From Terriglobia bacterium (GTDB taxonomy: Bacteria; Acidobacteriota; Terriglobia; 20CM-2-55-15): a stretch of 49,263 bases of DNA. The stretch spans positions 1 to 49,263 of the forward strand of contig DASXLG010000253.1 of assembly GCA_036496425.1 (NCBI GenBank). Reading direction: 5' to 3'. Every line of letters begins with the position of its first letter. The first letter of the stretch is position 1. Under the pieces are notes generated by a model that ran no database searches, was not told the origin of the DNA, and was given only the letters and a program-made list of their open reading frames with translations. This document shows, piece by piece, positions 4,798-47,186 of this stretch. Position numbers and translations under genes: made by a program.

Positions 4798-5940
4798 ATG
4801 TACAAGCGGACACTTCCAATCCGGGACCTGGTGCGGCGGCGGTCACTGTTTCTGATGGGACCGCGGCAAACTGGAAAGAGCACGCTGCTTCGTCACCTGT
4901 TCCCCGACGCCCGCTATGTCGATCTTCTCGAGGCGAATACCTTTCGTGAATTAAGCGCGTACCCCGAAACGCTACGGCAATCGATCAAGCCCCATGAAAA
5001 TCTGATCATTATCGATGAGGTGCAAAAACTGCCGGTTCTTCTCGATGAAGCGCAAGCGATGATCGATCGAAATAAAGCGCTTCGATTTATCTTCACGGGG
5101 AGCAGCGCCAGAAAGCTGAAGAGCGGCCACGCCAACCTCCTCGCCGGCAGGGCATGGTTTTTGCGCCTGCATCCGCTGGTTTCTGAAGAAGTGTCGTACG
5201 GCCTCCTTAACAAAAGACTGAACGTCGGCAGTCTGCCGGCCGTGTTGGATTCGGCGGATGCGAGAGAAGATTTGAAGGCGTATGTCGGCGTCTATCTTAA
5301 GGAAGAGATCCGCGCGGAGGGGCTGGTGCGCTCGATTGAAAGCTTCTCGCGCTTTCTCGAGGTCGCGGCGCTCACCAATACTCACATCCTGAACTACACG
5401 TCTGTGTCGAGCGACACGGGCATACCGGTTCGCACAGTTCGTGAACACTATCAGATGCTGGAAGACACGCTCATCGGATTTCAGCTTCCGCCGTATCGCC
5501 GGAACCTTAAGCGCAAGCCGGTATCGACGTCGAAATTTTATTTCTTCGATGTCGGTGTCGCGAATGTCCTGATGAGAAGAGGCGAGATATTACCCGGCTC
5601 GGAACTGTTCGGAGCCGCCATTGAGCACCAGGTTTTTCTCGAGCTTCGTGCGTATTTGGACTACCGGCGCCTCGACAGGGAACTGACATTCTGGCGCACT
5701 CACTCGGGCTATGAGGTCGATTTTCTCGTTGGAGATCATGTCGGCATCGAAGTGAAGGCTTCAAAGCGGGTGTCCTCAGCCGATATGAAAGGATTGCGGG
5801 CTCTCTCGGAAGAAATAAAGCTGAAGAAGAAGATTGTCGTATCGACCGAACCGCTGGAGCGCATAACCGAGGAGGGAATTACAGTGCTTCCCATAAGAAC
5901 ATTTTTCGAACAGCTATGGGAAGACCGCCTGCTCGAGTGA
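4798..5940 (+). CDS. AAA_14 / DUF4143 family ATPase
   Basis: 380 residues, the usual length of this family. An N-terminal P-loop ATPase has Walker A GPRQTGKS at residues 21-28, Walker B LIIIDE at about 69-74, and the sensor-like FTGSSARKL. The C-terminal DUF4143 part carries GYEVDFLV and IEVKAS at about 303-320, the layout of a PD-(D/E)xK nuclease core. Members are widespread and patchy, often horizontally moved; their biological role is not settled, and some are discussed as defence or toxin-like. It is a single gene behind an inverted repeat. ATG start at 4798; no strong Shine-Dalgarno sequence. Confidence 0.88.
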   Translation: MYKRTLPIRDLVRRRSLFLMGPRQTGKSTLLRHLFPDARYVDLLEANTFRELSAYPETLRQSIKPHENLIIIDEVQKLPVLLDEAQAMIDRNKALRFIFTGSSARKLKSGHANLLAGRAWFLRLHPLVSEEVSYGLLNKRLNVGSLPAVLDSADAREDLKAYVGVYLKEEIRAEGLVRSIESFSRFLEVAALTNTHILNYTSVSSDTGIPVRTVREHYQMLEDTLIGFQLPPYRRNLKRKPVSTSKFYFFDVGVANVLMRRGEILPGSELFGAAIEHQVFLELRAYLDYRRLDRELTFWRTHSGYEVDFLVGDHVGIEVKASKRVSSADMKGLRALSEEIKLKKKIVVSTEPLERITEEGITVLPIRTFFEQLWEDRLLE

Positions 5941-6143
5941 CCATCGGTCGTGTTACAAGCTTATTCTGTAAATACGCAGGAAAATCAGTTAGATCCCTAA
6001 GAAAGACTAACGCAGAAGAGACGTAGATGTTAGTGCGGACACCTTCCGATAGACAAACGCGCCGAACGGGAACACGGCAATCAGCTTTGCATTAGCAATG
6101 CTTCCCACTCAATCAAGAGCCGTTGTAATCTGTGAGGCATCGT

Positions 6144-6671
6144 ATGCAGCAGAAGTGCATCCTGTTATCTCTACTGATCGCATTCTTTGGAGCCGGAATG
6201 CCGTGCATGGCGCAGACACCAGCGATAGTGAGTTAATCGCCATGCCAGTTCACCACGTTCCAAGCGCAGGCGGCGTTCGTGGAGCGGTATTACACCCAGA
6301 GCGAATACGAGGCAGCAAAGGATAGCCGCACTATTGAATGTTTCAGGATTCAATACCTCAGCGATGGGCTGAACGGAAACAGCCCCTTGCCGTCCTGCCG
6401 TGACGGAAGATATTTCGATTCCGGCGGCAACTGCAGCCCCGGAGCCACATGTCGTAGCAGCAGGCAGCTCACGCAAAAAATCGGCTCAGTACTCAGGCAA
6501 GGCTATCTTGTCGGCAATATCGCGGCCGACCACGAGATCAGCAATCCATGGAATCTTCATCAGACTCATCATCCGATTGCGCATGAACAGCGAAATTTTC
6601 GACCTCGGCGCAAAGTAGCCGGCAAAACGAAGCGCAGCTTCCTGTTTCTTGAGAACAAAGGGAGCGAATAA
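6144..6671 (+). pseudogene. broken gene for a small secreted Cys-containing protein
   Basis: ATG at 6144, preceded by GAGG, opens a clear signal peptide (CILLSLLIAFFGAG, then Ala-Gln after MPCMAQ) that ends at an in-frame TAA (6234-6236). The same frame then continues open for over 140 codons (CQFTTFQAQAAFVERYY, CFRIQYLSDG, several Cys). The simplest reading is a secreted protein gene killed by one stop codon. The last part, beyond 6486, is antisense to the FAD monooxygenase and may not be original sequence. The family is not recognised. Confidence 0.45.
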
Positions 6672-7697
6672 TTCTTGGTATCGCTCAAACGCGCGTGAGT
6701 AGTCACCTTGGCATCGGTGAAGCTCGCCGGCGACAATATATGCGGCCACCATGGCCAGAGCCGATCCTTGTCCTGCAAGCAAAGAGACACATGACGCCGC
6801 ATCACCGACCAGGGTAACGCGCCCGCGTGTCCATAGGCCCCGTTCCGGGTGCATCCGAATCTGGCTTACGCGGTCGAAGTAGAGATCGTTGCTATTGTCG
6901 AGCGCATTCAGTATCTGCGGACACTCCCACCCGCTGCGCCCAAAGCGCTTCCTGAGCAGAGCTTTTTGGTCGCGAACGCTATCATTTGCCGCCCGATCGA
7001 TTGATTCATCTTCAAAAATGAATAGGAACATTGTGCGGTCGCCGCGCATCGCGAATCGTGATACCTGCTGTCCCACCTCGGTATACATCACGTAGCCGAG
7101 TTCATCTCTCGGTCTGTACCCTGCGGCTTCGAAGGCTGCTACCCTGTAACCCAGGTATTTCTCATACTGACGTTCCGCACCGAACACGAGTTCGCGCACT
7201 TTCGAGTGAAGCCCGTCCGCACCGAACACAAGATCGAAATCCCGGGCAGGCCCCTTTTCGAAGCTAACGTGGACAGATGTTGGCGATTGGTCGATCCTGG
7301 TGACACTGTCGCCAAAGATGGTTTCAACCTTGCCTTCGATTTTCCCGAAGATTGAAGCAGCCAGATCGCCACGGGGAAGGCTGGTAAAGCGACCTTGAGC
7401 TGCCCGCGCGAAGGTTTCGGCGGAAAATCCAGCAACGCGTTGTCCCTTCCTGTTTGCAACCCGCACCTCCTTTACCCGATATCCCCTGCCGGTGATTTCT
7501 GGGAGCAGACCCATGCGCTCTGCGATCTCAAAACCTGCACCGAAGAAGTCGATGATGTAACCACCCGTTCGCAAATGAGGTGCTGCTTCCACGATAGTGG
7601 CCTGCATGCCATAGTGTGACAGCCAGTAGGCAAGCGTTGGCCCCGCAATACCGGCACCCGAAATCAGGACTTTTAGGACGTTAGGCAAATACGCCAT
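6486..7697 (-). CDS. FAD-dependent monooxygenase (PHBH fold)
   Basis: 403 residues, full length for class A flavoprotein hydroxylases. Dinucleotide-binding GAGIAG is at 14-19, followed by the acidic end of strand 2 (IVEAAPHLRTGG). The DG-type motif GADGLHSKVR lies near the middle, and GRVTLVGDAASC near 295 binds the FAD ribityl chain. It would hydroxylate or epoxidise an aromatic or polyketide-like substrate with NAD(P)H; the substrate is unknown. TetX-like relatives share this layout, so inactivation of a drug is possible but unsupported. The ATG at 7697 is used; a start nearer the GAGIAG motif is also possible. No operon partner. Confidence 0.88.
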   Translation of the reverse strand: MAYLPNVLKVLISGAGIAGPTLAYWLSHYGMQATIVEAAPHLRTGGYIIDFFGAGFEIAERMGLLPEITGRGYRVKEVRVANRKGQRVAGFSAETFARAAQGRFTSLPRGDLAASIFGKIEGKVETIFGDSVTRIDQSPTSVHVSFEKGPARDFDLVFGADGLHSKVRELVFGAERQYEKYLGYRVAAFEAAGYRPRDELGYVMYTEVGQQVSRFAMRGDRTMFLFIFEDESIDRAANDSVRDQKALLRKRFGRSGWECPQILNALDNSNDLYFDRVSQIRMHPERGLWTRGRVTLVGDAASCVSLLAGQGSALAMVAAYIVAGELHRCQGDYSRAFERYQELFAPFVLKKQEAALRFAGYFAPRSKISLFMRNRMMSLMKIPWIADLVVGRDIADKIALPEY

Positions 7698-13095: not shown

Positions 13096-13422
13096 TTTTG
13101 TGGCTAATTGTCTTAGTTCCTCAAGGAGATCCAGCCGGAATTCGTTTGCTTCAGCGAAGCCTTCAAGGTCGGGCACCTTATTCAAATCGACCTCGCGAGC
13201 GCAGGTATTACAGCCGTCGGTCGCGTAAAGAACGTGATCTGTGCTGGAATATGCCAGCATACGGGGACTCTCACTGTCGCGGAGAACCCGCCCATTCTTC
13301 TCGTATGCATCGGGGTCCACCAGCCAGACATCCGGGCTTCCCAGCCGCCGGATGGAGTCGGCATCGAAATGAATCAGCTCTGAAGCGGCCGCGGAGAGCG
13401 AACGCTCGTGAAAGAAATTCAT
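13084..13422 (-). CDS. hypothetical protein coupled to nuoBCD
   Basis: 112 residues, family not recognised. It contains [19 protein letters not shown], the pair [13 protein letters not shown], and a CNTC motif in DGCNTCARE. There is no signal peptide or membrane segment. Its ATG overlaps the nuoBCD stop (ATGA), so it is translationally coupled to a complex I gene, and its stop lies inside the terminator loop. That context suggests a role with complex I or its Fe-S clusters; this is inference only. Confidence 0.7.
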
Positions 13423-15725
13423 TTTTCCAGCTCGCCGGCTACGATGTTCAGTGAGCCGAGTGCCGCGACGGCGTCGGACAGGTATCCGCCCTTAACCATG
13501 TGGCTGAAGGCCTGGAAAATGTAGAAGCAGGTGCCGCGGCAGCGCAGGCGGTACGGGCGTTTCGTGCCGTCGCTGATGAGATAAAACCCGAGTTCTCCGT
13601 TTGCCGCTTCCCAGTAGGAATAGACTTCGCCGACCGGGGGCAGGATGCCGTCCTGAATCAGTTCGAAGTGATTCATCAGATCTTCGATATTCGAGTAGAC
13701 GCCTTTCTTCGGCGGCAGGCTGATCCTGCGGTCGTCGATCTGGACCGGGCCTTCGGGAAGATTCTCGAGCGCCTGTTTGATGATGCGGAGGCTTTGCCGG
13801 ATCTCTTCCACCCGGACGAGGTAGCGGTCGTAGACATCGCCCTTCTCGCCGACCGGTATGTCGAACTCGAACTTGTCGTAGTCGTAATTGGGGAACCACT
13901 TCCGGACATCGTAAGGCACGCCGCAGGCCCGCAGCGTCGGACCGGTGAAGCCCCAGTCGATGGCGTCTTCCGCTGAAATCGGAGTGATGCCCTCGGTGCG
14001 CATCTTGAAAATCTTGTTCTGGCGATTCATCTTCTCGATATCATCGAGATATTTCGGAATCGTGTCGAGCAGCGTCCGGGAACGCGTGACGAAGTCTGCA
14101 GGAATGTCATCGGCCAACCCGCCGATGCGGACGTAGCTGACCGTCAGGCGTCCGCCGCAACAGGATTCGAGCAGATCGTAGATCTCTTCACGCGGCCGGA
14201 ATCCATACCAGAAGTTGCTGATCGCGCCCATATCCACGAGATTCGTGCCGATGCAGACAAGATGATCGGCAATCCGGCTGAACTCCGAGAGGATGACGCG
14301 GATATATTGCGCGCGCTTCGGAATTTCGACGCCGAACATTTTTTCAACCGACATCGCGTAGGCGACGCCGTTCATCATGGCCGACATGTAATTCAGGCGA
14401 TCCGTGTAAGGAATCACCTGCCAGTACACGTGGGTTTCGGACATCTTTTCGAAGCAGCGATGGAGATAGCCGATCTCGGTGTCGGCGTCGATGATCCTTT
14501 CACCGTCCACCGCAACCTGCAGGCGGAAGGTGCCGTGCATCGCCGGATGCTGCGGGCCGACGTTCAGGATCTGAGGGTGCGCCAATCCCATCGATTCGGC
14601 ATATTTCTTCGCGCGCTCGACGACGGGCAGGTCGTCGGTTGTCGTGCACGGCGTGCGCAGGCCGGGAGGGAAGTCCTTCCGGAGCGGATGCCCGACAAAT
14701 TGGGAGTGCGTCAGCACGCGCCGCAGGTCGGGATGACCGTTAAACCGGATCCCGTACATGTCGTACGCTTCACGCTCGGACCAGTCGGCGCCTTTCCAGA
14801 TATCGGTTGCCGTATCGATTGTCGGATCGTCGCCCGGAACCGGCACCTTCAGCCGCAGCCGGTGCTTATTCGAGAGCGACAGCATGTGATAGACAACGTC
14901 ATATCTCGATGCGCGCTCGTTGAGATAATCGACGGCCGTGACGTCGAGGAGCATTTTGAAATCGAATTCCGGATCGCTTTTCAGCGCGCGCAAAACCGAT
15001 TTGGAACTCTCACGTTTGACCGTTATGGAAAGATCGCCGCGGAATTCGCGCATGTGGAGCACATCGTTCGGAAACTTCCGCCGGAAGGCATCTGCGATCG
15101 GCCCCTGAACTTCCTGGTTTTCTTCGAGGAACCGGACCAGGCCGCGCGGCGGGCCCTCGAGGCCGTGAACCGTGGCGTCGAGTTCGGGTGTTTTCAGCTT
15201 GGTCTGGCGCGGGTGGCGCTCGTAGGAGAGCCTGGTATCGTTTTCGACTTGCTGTTGCAGTTTGATAACAGCATCCAGCACGGCTTCCGGTGTCGGAGGG
15301 CAGCCTGGAATATAGACGTCGACCGGAATGATCTCGTCGATACCCTGCATCACATGGTATGCGCGATAGAAGCCGCCGCAAGTCGCGCAAGCGCCCATGG
15401 AAATGACCCATCGGGGCTCCGCCATCTGATCGTAGATCTGTTTCAGAATCGGGCCCATTTTGTCGTTAATGGTGCCCAGGACCATCAAAACATCCGACTG
15501 CTTTGGCGAAAACCGTACGACTTCCGATCCAAACCGGGCGATGTCATAATGCGACGACACGGTCGCCATGAATTCGATTGCGCAACACGCCGTCCCGAAG
15601 GGATAAGGCCAGAGGGAACTCTTGCGCGCCCAGTTGATGAGGGAGTGATAGGTGGTGGTGAAAAAGCTCTCGTGCTCTCGCTTGGTTTCGACTTCGGCGA
15701 CACTCATAAACTTTGATTGTAGCAT
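13419..15725 (-). CDS. nuoBCD: NADH-quinone oxidoreductase, fused subunits NuoB-NuoC-NuoD
   Basis: 768 residues joining three complex I peripheral-arm subunits. NuoB (about 1-160) has tandem C47-C48 plus C113 and C142, the N2 cluster ligands, in [19 protein letters not shown] and IPGCPPTPE. NuoC (about 190-370) has the signature [16 protein letters not shown]. NuoD (about 385-768) starts at [18 protein letters not shown] and is complete. NuoCD fusions are common; a B-C-D fusion is rarer. The start at 15725 or at 15707 (MSVAEVE) are both possible. No other nuo gene is adjacent. The only partner is the 112-residue protein overlapping its stop. Confidence 0.95.
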
Positions 15726-34834: not shown

Positions 34835-35029
34835 GGACATTCCCCGCCTTTTCAAGGCGGGGTGCCCGAGCGACCAAACGTTAGAACGCTCGGGCGGGGC
34901 GGTTATTAACGAACCGCGAAGCGCACCTATTTTGTTTGAACTTACTAACCGCCCCGCCTGCGCCGCTAAGGAACCGGATCATTTTGTTAATGGCGCAGCC
35001 TCCCCGCCTTTGAAAGGCGGGGAGTGTCC
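34835..35029. repeat. five-hairpin dispersed element, copy A
   Basis: About 195 bp with terminal inverted repeats (GGACATTCCCCGCC and GGCGGGGAGTGTCC, 13 of 14). Five hairpins follow each other: CCCCGCCTT/AAGGCGGGG (34842-34862), GCCCGAGCG/CGCTCGGGC (34864-34895), GGGGCGGTTA/TAACCGCCCC (34896-34955), CTGCGCC/GGCGCAG (34958-34998) and CCCCGCCTTT/AAAGGCGGGG (35002-35022). It lies in the divergent region between prmA and the TIGR03435 gene. Open frames across it are shadows. No transposase is nearby. Confidence 0.93.
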
Positions 35030-35127
35030 ATCTCACCGACTGCCTTGTTCCAGATTGTTCCAATTCATCACATCTTCGCGTCAGATCAACCTTCCGGCAT
35101 CCTTTATATATAGGTTACTCTTGGTTG

Positions 35128-36787: not shown

Positions 36788-36815
36788 TGGATAGGTGCTT
36801 TATCGTGCTTTATAA

Positions 36816-36937
36816 GCGAACCGCGAAGGGGACCCTTTTTCCTGTCGGAGATTACTAACCGCCCCGTCTGCGCCGCTAAGGAACGGGACCTTTTCATTAG
36901 TGGCGCAGCCACCCCGCCTTGGAAAAGCGGGGAATGT
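36816..36937. repeat. five-hairpin dispersed element, half copy B
   Basis: This copy holds only the right half of element A: the middle GCGAACCGCGAAG segment, the right arm of the third hairpin (TAACCGCCCC), the fourth hairpin (CTGCGCC/GGCGCAG) and the fifth (CCCCGCCTT, degraded partner AAGCGGGG), ending GGAATGT. The stems match copies A and C while the loop of hairpin four differs. It lies between convergent genes. Confidence 0.88.
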
Positions 36938-36967: not shown

Positions 36968-37849
36968 TCAGACTCTACCCGAAAGTTTGTCGGGCGTAAT
37001 CGGCAAGTCGCGGACTCTCTTCCCGGTGGCATGGAAGACGGCGTTGGCGATGGCGGCTCCGGTGCCTGTGATTCCGATTTCGCCGATGCCGCGGGCGCCG
37101 AGCCGGTCCACATGCGTGTCAGGAACACCGATGGCGGAGACCTGGATATCGCCAATGTCCGCATTCACAGGTACGTGATATTCGCTGAGATTTGCGTTCA
37201 AGATCCGGCCCGTGTGCGGATCGACGTGAGTCGCCTCATGCAACGCGAGGCTGATGCCCCACACGATACCGCCGATGAATTGGCTTTTCGCGGTCTTCTC
37301 GTTGATGAGCCTGCCGACGTCATAGACGGCGACGACTCGCCGGACCCGAATAACACCCAGCGCCGGATCGCAGGCGACTTCAGCGAATATCGCTCCGAAG
37401 GAGTGCGGCGAAAATCTCTTCTTGAGATCAGGGTTCGGTTCGACCTTGGCCGTCGCCTCGAAGGGCGGTGTGTTGTTCTTCATCCTCGTCCGAACCTGCA
37501 GAGCAGCCTCATACACGGCCGGTGTCACGCTGGCCGTCGTCATGGAACCGGCGGAGATCGGCGCTTCGGGCAGATTCGTGTCGCCGATAACGACATCGAT
37601 TTTGTCGGGTGACATTTCGAGGGCTTCGGCGGCAACCTGCGCAAGGATTGTGTAGGTGCCGCCACCGATCTCGTGTGTACCCGTTGCGACCAGGGCACGC
37701 CCGTCCGGCTTGATTCGAACCAGTGCCTGCGCAGGCCTCCTGTTGGCCGGATATGTTTCCGTCGCCATACCCCAGCCGATCAGCCAGGGGCCATCCTGCA
37801 TCGAACGAGGGTGGCCGTTCCGCTTCGCCCAGCCGAATTGTTCAGCCGC
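36968..37849 (-). pseudogene. PaoC-like molybdenum subunit, C-terminal part after stop
   Basis: C-terminal 293 codons of the aldehyde oxidoreductase large subunit, in the same frame as the N-terminal part and separated from it only by TAA at 37850-37852. The junction reads CYT-stop-AAEQFGWAKRN, just as an uninterrupted homologue would. It holds the rest of the molybdopterin site, including EIGGGTYTILAQVAAEAL and the region with the base-catalyst Glu, LGARGIGEIGITGTG. The first in-frame ATG is at 37801. Without readthrough or reinitiation it is not made with the rest. Confidence 0.75.
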
Positions 37850-39028
37850 TTATGTGTAACAGTCGCGCAGGTGTTTTCCGGTGAAAGGCAATTGTGTTTG
37901 AGGATCGGCTTCGGCGTAATTCACCAGACGCAGCTGAAGCGGATCCATATTCAGCGAATACGCCAGTTCGTCCATAGCGACTTCGAGCGCGTAGGTTCCG
38001 GTCGCGACACCGGGCGCCCGCATATACGTCGGAGTGCCGAGATTGAGAGAGACCAGCCGGGAGGTTGTGGACACGTTCGGACACGAATACATCACGCGCG
38101 TCGGGAACGCGGACGATTCCAGATAGTCCTCGAGAAACGACGTATTCGCGTAGACTTCATGCCATATGGCCGTAAGCTTGCCTTCACGCGTCGCGCCGAG
38201 GACGATCCGCTGCTGGGTACGCGGCCGCGCACCCACCGGCCCGAACATTTGCGGGCGTTCGAGAACGAGCTTGACCGGCCTGTTGATCTGTCTGGCCGCC
38301 ATCGCGGCAAGCACGGTATGCGACCACACTTCGCCTTTGCAGCCAAACGCCCCGCCCACGAACCGGGTAATCACGCGGACGTTGTCTTCCGGTATCGCGA
38401 AGATCTTCGCCAGTGTTTTCCTGTGGCCGCTGATATTTTGTGTGGTGTCGTAGACGGTAAGACGATCCCCGTTCCAATGCGCGATCGTGGCGTGCGGCTC
38501 CATCGGATTGTGATGTTGAATCGGCGTCGTGTATATCTGATCGACGATCACATCCGCCTCGCTACCGAGCCCTTTTGTGACATTGCCGAAGCTGAGGTCT
38601 CCGGGCTCTCCGTTATGCGTTCCCGGATGTGCGTTGGCGAAGCCGGCCTTGAAGTCCATGTGCGGAGTGGACGGACGATAATTGACCCGTAGAAGTTCCG
38701 CCGCATGCTGCGCCTGCTCCAGAGTCTCGGCGACAACGACCGCAATCGGCTGATTGTTGTAATGCACCGCGTTGTCCTGGAGTAAAGACAGCCGTTTTTC
38801 CGGCTCGGGCGCCTTCGGACCGGCGAAGGGAGTCAGTACCGCGAGGACGCCCTTTTGAGTGTTCGCCGCGGATGTATCGATGCTTTCGATGCGTCCGGAG
38901 GGAATGGTGCTCTGGACCATGACGGCATAAGCGATATCGGGGATCTGGAACTCGGCAGTATAGGTCGCCTGACCGGTGACCTTGGCTTTTCCATCGATGC
39001 GGGACAGGGGAAGGCCGATCGTGTTCAT
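37850..39028 (-). pseudogene. PaoC-like molybdenum subunit, N-terminal part, truncated by TAA
   Basis: Starts at ATG 39028 (MNTIGLPLSRIDGKAKVTG), overlapping the stop of the FAD-subunit gene by 4 bases. It encodes about 392 residues of the xanthine-dehydrogenase-family large subunit: PIQHHNPMEPHATIAHW, the FVGGAFGCKGE molybdopterin loop, and ALEVAMDELAYSLNMDPL. It ends at TAA (37850-37852). Homologues run to about 690-730 residues, and the remaining frame downstream is intact, so this is a recent nonsense change, a sequencing error, or a suppressed stop. The longer upstream frame to 39205 is antisense-free overlap and not used. Confidence 0.8.
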
Positions 39029-40014
39029 GCCAGACCTCCGGCAATGTGCAGAGCGCGAACAATGGCCTCGCGGGTCATATCTACTTTGAATTTGTTGAAA
39101 GTGTATGGTTTCGCGCCTTGAACGGCGCGCCGGGCCGCGCTTTCGAAAACCGCTAGACTTGCTGTGGCACCGGCAAGCGATTGTTCGGCGGACCTGGCGC
39201 GCCATGGCTTATGTGCCACGCCACCAAGCGCGATCCGGGCGCTGCGGATGCGGTTGCCCTCGAGTTCCAGCGCGGCAGCCACCGAGATCAGAGCGAACGC
39301 GTAGCTGGCGCGATCCCGCACTTTTAGGTAATGAGAGTGGGCGGCGTATGGAGAGGGAGGAAGATCGATCGAAAGGATCAGTTCGTCGGGCTGCAGCACC
39401 GTGTCCAGCCACGGCGAGTCGCCCGGTAACCTGTGGAATCTCCCCATCGGAATCCAGCGCTGGCCGTGAGCGCTGCGCACACGGATGGTGGCATCCAGAG
39501 CCGCGAGAGCCACGCACATATCGGACGGGTGAGTGGCAATGCACGACTTGCTCGCGCCGAAAATGGCATGGATTCGATTAAACCCGTCGATGGCGCCGCA
39601 GCCGCTTCCGGGCGCACGCTTGTTGCATTCCGGAGATCCGGTATCCATGAAGTAATAACAGCGCGTTCGCTGTAGAAGGTTGCCCGCGTTGGTCGCCTGG
39701 TTTCGCAATTGCGGTGATGCGCCGGAGAGAATGGCCTGGCTGAGAAGCGGGTAGTTCGAACGCACGAGCGGGTGGGCCGCCGTGTCGCTGTTTCGCGCGA
39801 CGGCGCCCAGGCGGAGGCCGCCGTCGGGCAGTGCCTCGATCGCGTTCAACGGCAGCCGGTTGATGTCGACCAGGCGCGTGGGTGTTTCGACGCTGCCTTT
39901 CATGAGATCGACAAGGTTTGTGCCGCCGGCTAGAAATCTGGTGTGATTGGGACGGACAACAGACTGGACCGCGTCGTCGGCGGTGCTGACGCGCTCGTAT
40001 TCGAAAGGATTCAT
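39025..40014 (-). CDS. PaoB-like FAD-binding subunit of aldehyde oxidoreductase
   Basis: 329 residues, complete. The FAD-binding segment FLAGGTNLVDLMKG is at 28-40, and the second one is SGASPQLRNQATNAGNLLQ. It has four cysteines C119, C130, C139 and C158 (RTRCYYFMD, ECNKRAPGSGCGA, KSCIA), the extra 4Fe-4S cluster known in E. coli PaoB (YagS). The C-terminal CO-dehydrogenase flavoprotein domain is complete. It lies between the 2Fe-2S and molybdenum subunit genes; it overlaps the latter by ATGA. Confidence 0.9.
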   Translation of the reverse strand: MNPFEYERVSTADDAVQSVVRPNHTRFLAGGTNLVDLMKGSVETPTRLVDINRLPLNAIEALPDGGLRLGAVARNSDTAAHPLVRSNYPLLSQAILSGASPQLRNQATNAGNLLQRTRCYYFMDTGSPECNKRAPGSGCGAIDGFNRIHAIFGASKSCIATHPSDMCVALAALDATIRVRSAHGQRWIPMGRFHRLPGDSPWLDTVLQPDELILSIDLPPSPYAAHSHYLKVRDRASYAFALISVAAALELEGNRIRSARIALGGVAHKPWRARSAEQSLAGATASLAVFESAARRAVQGAKPYTFNKFKVDMTREAIVRALHIAGGLA

Positions 40015-40023
40015 GACATCTCC

Positions 40024-40641
40024 TCAGGTCTGTCTGTAACTGGCGCGAACGGCTTCGACGATACCCGGGTAGGCGCCGCACCGGCAGATGTTGCCGCTCA
40101 TGCGCTCGCGAATCTCATCGGTCGTCAGTTCGATGGCTTTGGGATGCGCCAGATCCGGCGTTACAACGCTAGGTACGCCGCGGCGCACCTCACTCAGAAG
40201 GCCGATCGCGGAACATATCTGTCCGGATGTGCAGTATCCGCACTGCAAGCCGTCGTATTCGATGAATGCGGATTGTACGGGATGCAAGTCGTCGCCGCCG
40301 GCCACGCCTTCGATGGTCGTCACCTTGTCGCCATGGTGTACCGCGGCCAGCGACAGGCAGCTATTGCTCCGGCGGCCGTTAACCAGAACCGTGCACGCAC
40401 CGCACTGTCCGTGATCACAGCCTTTCTTTGTTCCGGTAAGCGCAAGGTGTTCGCGAAGAAGATCCAGGAGGGTCGTCCGCGGATCGATCGTGAGGTTGTA
40501 ATCCTGTTCATTGATCGTCAGATCCAGAGGAACACCGTTTTGCACCGCAGCGCCCGCTTCCTCCGGCAGGACAGGAACGCCGATTACCATCGCTCCGGTC
40601 AGAACACCCGCAGTTTTCACAAAGTCACGGCGCGTTGCCAT
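40024..40641 (-). CDS. PaoA-like 2Fe-2S subunit with Tat signal
   Basis: 205 residues. The N-terminus TRRDFVKTAGVLTGAMVIG is a twin-arginine signal, as in periplasmic PaoA (YagT). First 2Fe-2S site C75, C80, C83, C95; second C134, C137, C186, C188, in QCGYCTSGQ and NICRCGAYPG. It passes electrons from the molybdenum centre to FAD. First gene of a three-gene operon in the paoABC order; a PaoD-type chaperone is not seen. Broken partner subunit: see 36968-39028. Confidence 0.92.
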   Translation of the reverse strand: MATRRDFVKTAGVLTGAMVIGVPVLPEEAGAAVQNGVPLDLTINEQDYNLTIDPRTTLLDLLREHLALTGTKKGCDHGQCGACTVLVNGRRSNSCLSLAAVHHGDKVTTIEGVAGGDDLHPVQSAFIEYDGLQCGYCTSGQICSAIGLLSEVRRGVPSVVTPDLAHPKAIELTTDEIRERMSGNICRCGAYPGIVEAVRASYRQT

Positions 40642-46984: not shown

Positions 46985-47186
46985 AGACGAACATTCCCCG
47001 CCTTTCCAAGGCGGGGTGGCTGCGCCATCAATCAATGGGCCCGTTCTTTAGCGGCGCAGACGGGGCGGTTAGTAACTTCAAAACAATAAGGTGCGCTTCG
47101 CGGTTCGTTGATAACCGCCCCGCCCGAGCGTTCTAACGTCTGATCGCTCGGGCACCCCGCCTTGAAAAGGCGGGGAATGTCCGTCT
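46985..47186. repeat. five-hairpin dispersed element, copy C (inverted)
   Basis: 202 bp, opposite orientation to copy A. The terminal inverted repeats are AGACGAACATTCCCCGCC and its complement at 47169-47186, 17 of 18. All five hairpins of copy A are present in reverse order: CCCCGCCTT/AAGGCGGGG at both ends, CTGCGCC/GGCGCAG, GGGGCGGTTA/TAACCGCCCC, GCCCGAGCG/CGCTCGGGC. It lies in the divergent region between the membrane protein and amidohydrolase genes. Apparent reading frames through it are shadows. Confidence 0.93.

What the first reader, a model, noticed from the sequence alone, without database searches (positions are those of the whole stretch)
36968..39028. Single in-frame TAA splits an otherwise intact molybdenum subunit
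CYT-stop-AAEQFGWAKRN at 37850 is the only defect in a PaoABC-like operon. Both halves and their key motifs are preserved. It is either very recent, a base error (CAA or GAA to TAA), or a site read through.
Basis: seen in the sequence. Interest (0 to 1): 0.5.

Follow-up and report, generated by a model that had tools for sequence, protein, structure and literature searches.

The report
Single stop codon in aldehyde-oxidizing enzyme
A bacterium's gene for the molybdenum subunit of an aldehyde-oxidizing type of enzyme carries one stop codon in its middle and is otherwise in good order, which most likely reflects a very recent loss-of-function mutation or a sequencing error rather than anything new.

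Summary
On the minus strand, TAA at 37850-37852 is codon 393 of a 686-codon molybdenum subunit, third gene of an Fe-S/FAD/Mo (PaoABC-like) operon. The gene shows no decay: 0 of 74 near-invariant columns broken, dN/dS against the nearest intact relative 0.12 in both halves (dS saturated), no other stop or frameshift. Relatives carry varied sense codons there; none of 43 other matches that passed E <= 1e-130 in 399 genomes of the class has a stop. A loop about 43 residues shorter than in the nearest relatives is also short in 21 of 98 homologues. The stop lies between the two molybdopterin-binding domains, near where nicotinate dehydrogenase is made as two chains, but the codons after it still look like protein and the next ATG has weak ribosome-binding pairing (a weak argument: 11 of 17 other listed starts are weaker). 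No UAA-reading tRNA was found among 48 matches. Best reading: a very recent nonsense allele removing the second Moco domain, in an accessory operon with an intact paralogue. A consensus base error is the main rival. Read-through or a two-chain enzyme is unlikely, not excluded.

The parts
40024..40641 (-). Fe-S subunit gene (PaoA-like, 205 aa, twin-arginine signal at residues 3-30, two [2Fe-2S] domains)
   Evidence: NCBIfam PRK11433 PaoA 276.5 bits (cut-off 322), TAT_signal_seq over its cut-off; Pfam Fer2 and Fer2_2; PDB 5g5g_A E 8.2e-70
39025..40014 (-). FAD subunit gene (PaoB-like, 329 aa)
   Evidence: Pfam FAD_binding_5 and CO_deh_flav_C; PDB 5g5g_B PaoB E 2.2e-95, aligned 1-315
36968..39028 (-). 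molybdenum subunit gene (PaoC-like, 686 codons plus terminal stop), interrupted by one in-frame stop
37850..37852 (-). in-frame TAA, codon 393
   Evidence: sequence and translation; variable column with sense codons in relatives
37916..38608 (-). MoCoBD_1 domain (residues 141-371), before the stop
   Evidence: coordinates converted by hand
36983..37846 (-). MoCoBD_2 domain (about residues 395-682), after the stop
   Evidence: coordinates converted by hand
37799..37801 (-). first ATG (codon 410) after the stop; no GTG or TTG before it in frame
   Evidence: codon list; anti-SD energy -3.9 against -10.3, -8.3 and -10.2 for the three operon starts
37421..37480 (-). shortened loop (residues 517-536)
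   Evidence: coordinates converted by hand
37079..37081 (-). codon 650, the glutamate aligned with Glu692 of PaoC (catalytic role recalled, from no call)
   Evidence: alignment; E in 96 of 98 relatives

Best explanation
A real, evolutionarily very young nonsense allele. [quoted passage not shown] Translation of the third gene stops after residue 392, giving a fragment with the hammerhead and first Moco domain but without the second Moco domain and the active-site glutamate; such a fragment should not give a working enzyme, so the operon is expected to be inactive in cells with this allele. Shown here: the stop, the domain layout, the lack of decay, the uninterrupted paralogue. Inferred: that the base is real, that the product is inactive, and that the loss is tolerated because the operon is accessory and partly redundant.
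For: One stop only; 0 of 74 near-invariant columns broken (36 of 94 relatives also break none). dN/dS against G381 0.116 (N), 0.119 (C), FAD gene 0.104. Relative to G381, the window protein is not accelerated with 3 of 4 outgroups (59:63, 50:57, 57:63). GC3 is alike in both halves (0.704, 0.720) and the FAD gene (0.700). 43 of 43 other matches at E <= 1e-130, in 40 of the 398 other genomes searched, have no stop inside (two candidates scored per genome). The same genome has a paralogous operon with an uninterrupted Mo subunit, 43-45% identical (C250). The 5 same-genus genomes have no match at E <= 1e-130 and at best 6.1e-101, so the operon looks accessory. Belinky et al. 2021 (PMC7918605; abstract and passages seen) report that in-frame stops are widespread in bacterial genes and tend to persist only on the time scale of population polymorphism.
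Against: The genome is a draft in 407 contigs and reads are not available, so a consensus error gives the same picture. No second genome of this species was at hand. dS is saturated (2.0-2.8), so dN/dS says little about recent time. With L109 as outgroup the window has more unique changes than G381 (89:49), perhaps because L109 is closer to G381 (not tested). Belinky et al. argue that many such genes are not pseudogenes and suggest frequent read-through (abstract).
Confidence: 0.55

Rival explanations
1. Consensus base error in the draft assembly: the gene is in fact uninterrupted and encodes a normal enzyme.
For: All signs of constraint are intact; the genome is a 407-contig draft with 4.2% estimated contamination. 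Other disrupted frames exist in it: an ADOP gene on C209 lies in three pieces in different frames, and 2 of 32 ADOP matches below the cut-off have internal TGA or TAG stops; whether these are errors or decay is not known.
Against: No internal stop in 84 ABC_tran, 15 ADOP and 18 ACR_tran matches over the cut-off, so the sequence is not full of stop errors; this does not exclude one.
Confidence: 0.3
2. Stop-codon read-through: ribosomes decode this UAA at some rate and make a full-length subunit, the stop acting as a brake on dose.
For: Column 393 is variable (L 30, Q 17, E 12, R 10, A 10, I 8, V 6, M 2, W/T/K 1 each of 98), so most inserted residues should be tolerated; constraint is kept on both sides. 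Belinky et al. 2021 suggest that read-through of in-frame stops in bacteria is frequent (abstract).
Against: No tRNA with a UAA-reading anticodon among the 48 tRNA matches (genome 95% complete, 150 of 182 candidates scored); RF2-like and RF1-like genes present; 10 of 34 frames that I took as genes in the window end in TAA, so TAA is an ordinary stop; no unusual structure around the stop (z -0.32 and 0.51); none of the 43 other class matches shares the stop. UAA is recalled as the least leaky stop.
Confidence: 0.08
3. Gene fission: the two Moco domains are made as two polypeptides that assemble, as in nicotinate dehydrogenase of Eubacterium barkeri.
For: The stop falls between MoCoBD_1 (ends 371) and MoCoBD_2 (starts 395); 3hrd chains A (425 aa) and B (330 aa) are separate large and medium molybdopterin subunits that match the two pieces. 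Pairing before the ATG at codon 410 (-3.9) is no weaker than before 11 of 17 other starts that I listed in the window (uncurated starts), so a start there cannot be excluded.
Against: The three operon starts pair far better (-10.3, -8.3, -10.2), and -3.9 ranks only 19th-20th of 96 in-frame internal ATGs, this one included. Residues 394-409, untranslated in this model, match the ten nearest valid rows at 8-11 of 16, with F398, W400 and R403 kept (the same in 96, 98 and 93 of 98 relatives); a recent event would keep them too. None of the 43 other class matches is split.
Confidence: 0.05
4. Old pseudogene in decay.
For: A stop and a loop about 43 residues shorter than in the nearest relatives.
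Against: 0 of 74 near-invariant columns broken, no frameshift, equal dN/dS in both halves; the loop is short in 21 of 98 relatives.
Confidence: 0.02

Closest known systems
PaoABC, periplasmic aldehyde oxidoreductase of Escherichia coli (PDB 5g5g, 5g5h)
   Same: Order Fe-S, FAD, Mo (the order in E. coli is recalled); TAT signal on the Fe-S subunit (for PaoA, passages of PMC3958847); FAD subunit aligns to PaoB over 1-315 with the CYYF..CNKR..GCGA..SCIATHPSDM stretch; best NCBIfam model of the Mo subunit is PaoC (623 bits)
   Different: Scores lie under the equivalog cut-offs (PaoC 623 of 1180, PaoA 276.5 of 322); no paoD-like gene among the neighbours tested; one in-frame stop; shorter loop after residue 516
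Aldehyde oxidase 5y6q (PDB; large, medium and small subunit)
   Same: Closest solved Mo subunit by score (546 bits against 431 for PaoC)
   Different: Its small subunit chain (162 aa) aligns only from residue 37 of the window's Fe-S subunit, so the TAT region has no counterpart in the chain as deposited; no stop
Nicotinate dehydrogenase of Eubacterium barkeri (PDB 3hrd; organism recalled)
   Same: Mo subunit in two chains that match the two pieces here
   Different: There two proper subunits; here no clear start signal for the second piece
In-frame stops in otherwise constrained bacterial genes (Belinky et al. 2021, PMC7918605; abstract and passages seen)
   Same: Stop inside a gene with signs of purifying selection
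   Different: That study required the stop in two or more genomes (passage); here only one genome has it

Membership tests
Xanthine oxidase family, three-subunit molybdenum hydroxylase | Fe-S, FAD and Mo subunits with the family's Pfam domains | tested here: met
   Fer2, Fer2_2; FAD_binding_5, CO_deh_flav_C; Ald_Xan_dh_C, MoCoBD_1, MoCoBD_2
Xanthine oxidase family, three-subunit molybdenum hydroxylase | Active-site glutamate near the end of the Mo subunit | tested here: met
   E650 aligned with Glu692 of PaoC, E in 96 of 98 relatives; it lies after the stop
PaoABC | Equivalog score of the Mo subunit (NF041671, 1180 bits) | tested here: not met
   623.2 bits for the read-through frame, so PaoC-like, not filed as PaoC
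PaoABC | TAT signal on the Fe-S subunit | tested here: met
   TIGR01409 28.2 bits, cut-off 16.7
PaoABC | paoD chaperone as last gene of the operon (abstract of PMC3909100 in the listing) | tested here: not met
   Downstream is a methyltransferase on the other strand; the only XdhC_C match of the genome is on another contig, C181
PaoABC | Oxidizes aldehydes in the periplasm | not testable with these tools
   needs an assay
Stop-codon read-through gene | Stop conserved among relatives, or a decoding tRNA, or a stimulating structure | tested here: not met
   None of 43 other matches has a stop; no UAA-reading tRNA among 48 matches; folding ordinary
Split Mo subunit (nicotinate dehydrogenase type) | Own start signal for the second chain | tested here: inconclusive
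   Pairing -3.9, far weaker than the operon's other starts but no weaker than 11 of 17 other listed starts
Old pseudogene | Several lesions and relaxed constraint | tested here: not met

The most novel reading that the evidence does not exclude
The stop is real and tolerated: the cell makes both a 392-residue fragment and some full-length subunit by reading through UAA at a domain linker, or makes the two Moco domains as two chains, so that the enzyme stays active.
Probability: 0.12. Interest if true: 0.5.

Novelty: already known. Interest (0 to 1): 0.12.

Why it matters
If real, it is a snapshot of the first step of losing an accessory molybdoenzyme, before any decay, and a reminder that a gene caller would report two genes here. 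It opens no new mechanism. If it proved to be read through, it would be an unusual native case at UAA; if made as two chains, a second case of the nicotinate dehydrogenase layout arising by one base change.

Tried and rejected
Old pseudogene: rejected by the absence of decay. Loop as a second lesion: set aside, because 21 of 98 relatives have short loops. Codon reassignment: rejected, because TAA ends 10 of 34 frames that I took as genes in the window, RF1-like and RF2-like genes are present (told apart by the PAT and SPF motifs, recalled), and no stop lies inside 117 of 117 matches over the cut-off in three large families (150 of 171 ABC_tran candidates were scored); below the cut-off, 2 of 32 ADOP matches had stops (TGA, TAG), none TAA. 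A second copy with another codon in the same genome: a DNA search found only the window itself and 101 bases of the paralogue at 71%. A stop in a same-genus relative (G001, 1 TAA; the other 16 matches from other genomes in that call had none): its open frame begins near query residue 158, so the stop lies near residues 153-158 of a broken 36%-identical gene, not at the same site. RNA structure at the stop: nothing. One search also flagged L031 and L003 for an internal stop; one search shows that these are the natural ends of the genes. Rows dropped: L001, L002 (same place as L022), L003, L006, L007 before the alignment of 98 relatives; L013, L019, L025, L085 before the column test with 94 relatives. 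In one search the row L028 was read in a wrong frame and is not used. Paper searches: PaoABC, nicotinate dehydrogenase, stop-codon read-through with pseudogene; only PMC7918605 (abstract, passages) and PMC3958847 (passages) were opened, the rest seen as listings.

Full report
What is there. The window's minus strand carries three adjoining genes: an Fe-S subunit (40641-40024), an FAD subunit (40014-39025) and a molybdenum subunit (39028-36968). Each has a strong Shine-Dalgarno sequence (anti-SD energies -10.3, -8.3, -10.2). The Mo subunit reads as 686 codons with one TAA at codon 393, 37850-37852. Domain searches place Ald_Xan_dh_C and MoCoBD_1 before the stop and MoCoBD_2 after it, and solved homologues align in register across it. 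The operon is PaoABC-like: the Fe-S subunit has a TAT signal, the FAD subunit matches PaoB best among solved chains, and the Mo subunit's best NCBIfam model is PaoC, though under its cut-off (623 of 1180 bits). No paoD lies beside it; the only XdhC_C match of the genome is on another contig. The organism was not identified.

Relatives. The first relatives were at 55% identity or less. A search of 399 genomes of the class, with the two best candidates of each scored, found closer ones: G381 (67%), G298 (63%) and G208 (59%) over about the first 516 residues. G381 has an uninterrupted Mo subunit of 725 residues, an FAD gene and an Fe-S gene that runs off the stretch held. None of the 43 matches at E <= 1e-130 in the 40 other genomes that had one has a stop inside, and all 43 have open frames of at least 739 residues. 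At the stop's column, 98 relatives show L 30, Q 17, E 12, R 10, A 10, I 8, V 6, M 2 and W, T, K once each: the site varies freely, while F398 (96 of 98) and W400 (98 of 98) a few residues later hardly do.

No decay. Of 74 columns that are at least 95% one residue among 94 relatives, the window protein breaks none; 36 of the 94 relatives, each tested against the rest, break none either. Against G381, dN/dS is 0.116 before and 0.119 after the stop and 0.104 for the FAD gene; dS is 2.0 to 2.8 and thus saturated, and for the Fe-S gene (161 codons) it could not be computed. Unique changes of window and G381 are 59:63, 50:57 and 57:63 with outgroups L110, L117 and L026, but 89:49 with L109, which may be closer to G381. 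GC3 is alike in both halves. So constraint held until very recently, or still holds.

A second difference. The loop after residue 516 is about 43 residues shorter than in G381 (hand count); the nearest relatives all have the long form. It is short (39 residues or fewer) in 21 of 98 relatives, 14 of them with 21 to 24 residues, two of the 21 being incomplete frames. I take it as a tolerated variant, not a lesion.

How it most likely works. Translation ends at residue 392. The product lacks MoCoBD_2 and the glutamate that aligns with Glu692 of PaoC, so the enzyme should be dead (inference). Loss is plausible: the same genome has a paralogous operon whose Mo subunit, 43-45% identical, is uninterrupted, and the 5 same-genus genomes have no match better than 6.1e-101. 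In-frame stops in constrained bacterial genes are a described phenomenon that tends to live on the time scale of polymorphism; the same authors, however, argue that many such genes are not pseudogenes and suggest frequent read-through (PMC7918605, abstract and passages). A base error in this 407-contig draft would look the same; I give recent mutation 0.55 and error 0.3. Other disrupted frames exist in the genome, such as an ADOP gene on C209 in three pieces.

Why not something stranger. Read-through: the 48 tRNA matches of the genome include none with an anticodon for a stop codon (one weak match has an unassigned four-base anticodon, catg), RF1-like and RF2-like genes are present, 10 of 34 frames taken as genes end in TAA, 117 of 117 matches over the cut-off in three large families have no internal stop, and folding is ordinary. 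The genome is 95% complete and the tRNA search scored 150 of 182 candidates, so a missed tRNA is possible. Two chains: the position of the stop between the two Moco domains recalls nicotinate dehydrogenase (3hrd chains A and B). The first ATG after the stop is codon 410 with anti-SD pairing of -3.9, about 19th of 96 internal ATGs; but 11 of 17 other starts that I listed in the window, uncurated, pair less well, so this test is not decisive. The 16 codons before that ATG still match relatives at 8 to 11 of 16 positions in the ten nearest valid rows (the paralogue has 9), which argues against an old split but not against a new one.

Verdict. Observation confirmed; interpretation right in outline; ordinary. 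Only reads, a second strain or proteomics can decide between mutation, error and read-through.

Noticed in passing
window 34840-35030, 46991-47177 and a partial copy at 36810-36937: A dispersed repeat of about 190 bases with inverted, palindromic ends (CCCCGCCTT...AAGGCGGGG), MITE- or REPIN-like (recalled terms). A search of the own genome listed 37 near-full-length places, the window's own two included, and 3 partial ones (40 of 140 candidates scored, so a lower bound); the palindrome occurs 5 times in the window with up to 2 mismatches against 0.00 expected. The partial copy lies just downstream of the Mo subunit gene.
   Followed up: partly
window 13419-15725, minus strand: A single 768-residue frame holds the 20, 30 and 49 kDa subunit domains of respiratory complex I (NuoB, NuoC, NuoD) in one protein.
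   Followed up: no
L174 (G000:C365:6222-6591): Two unusual tRNA-like genes in a row: tRNA-Gly with anticodon acc, and one with an unassigned four-base anticodon catg scoring only 33.3 bits.
   Followed up: no
L022 (G000:C250, match 5722-7299 with flanks): A second operon of the same type in the same genome, with uninterrupted Mo and FAD frames and an Fe-S frame that runs off the stretch; Mo subunit 43-45% identical to the window's.
   Followed up: partly
G000:C209:4844-6538: An ADOP permease gene lies in three pieces in different frames (profile positions 248-599, 608-752, 749-803): another disrupted gene, or assembly errors.
   Followed up: no
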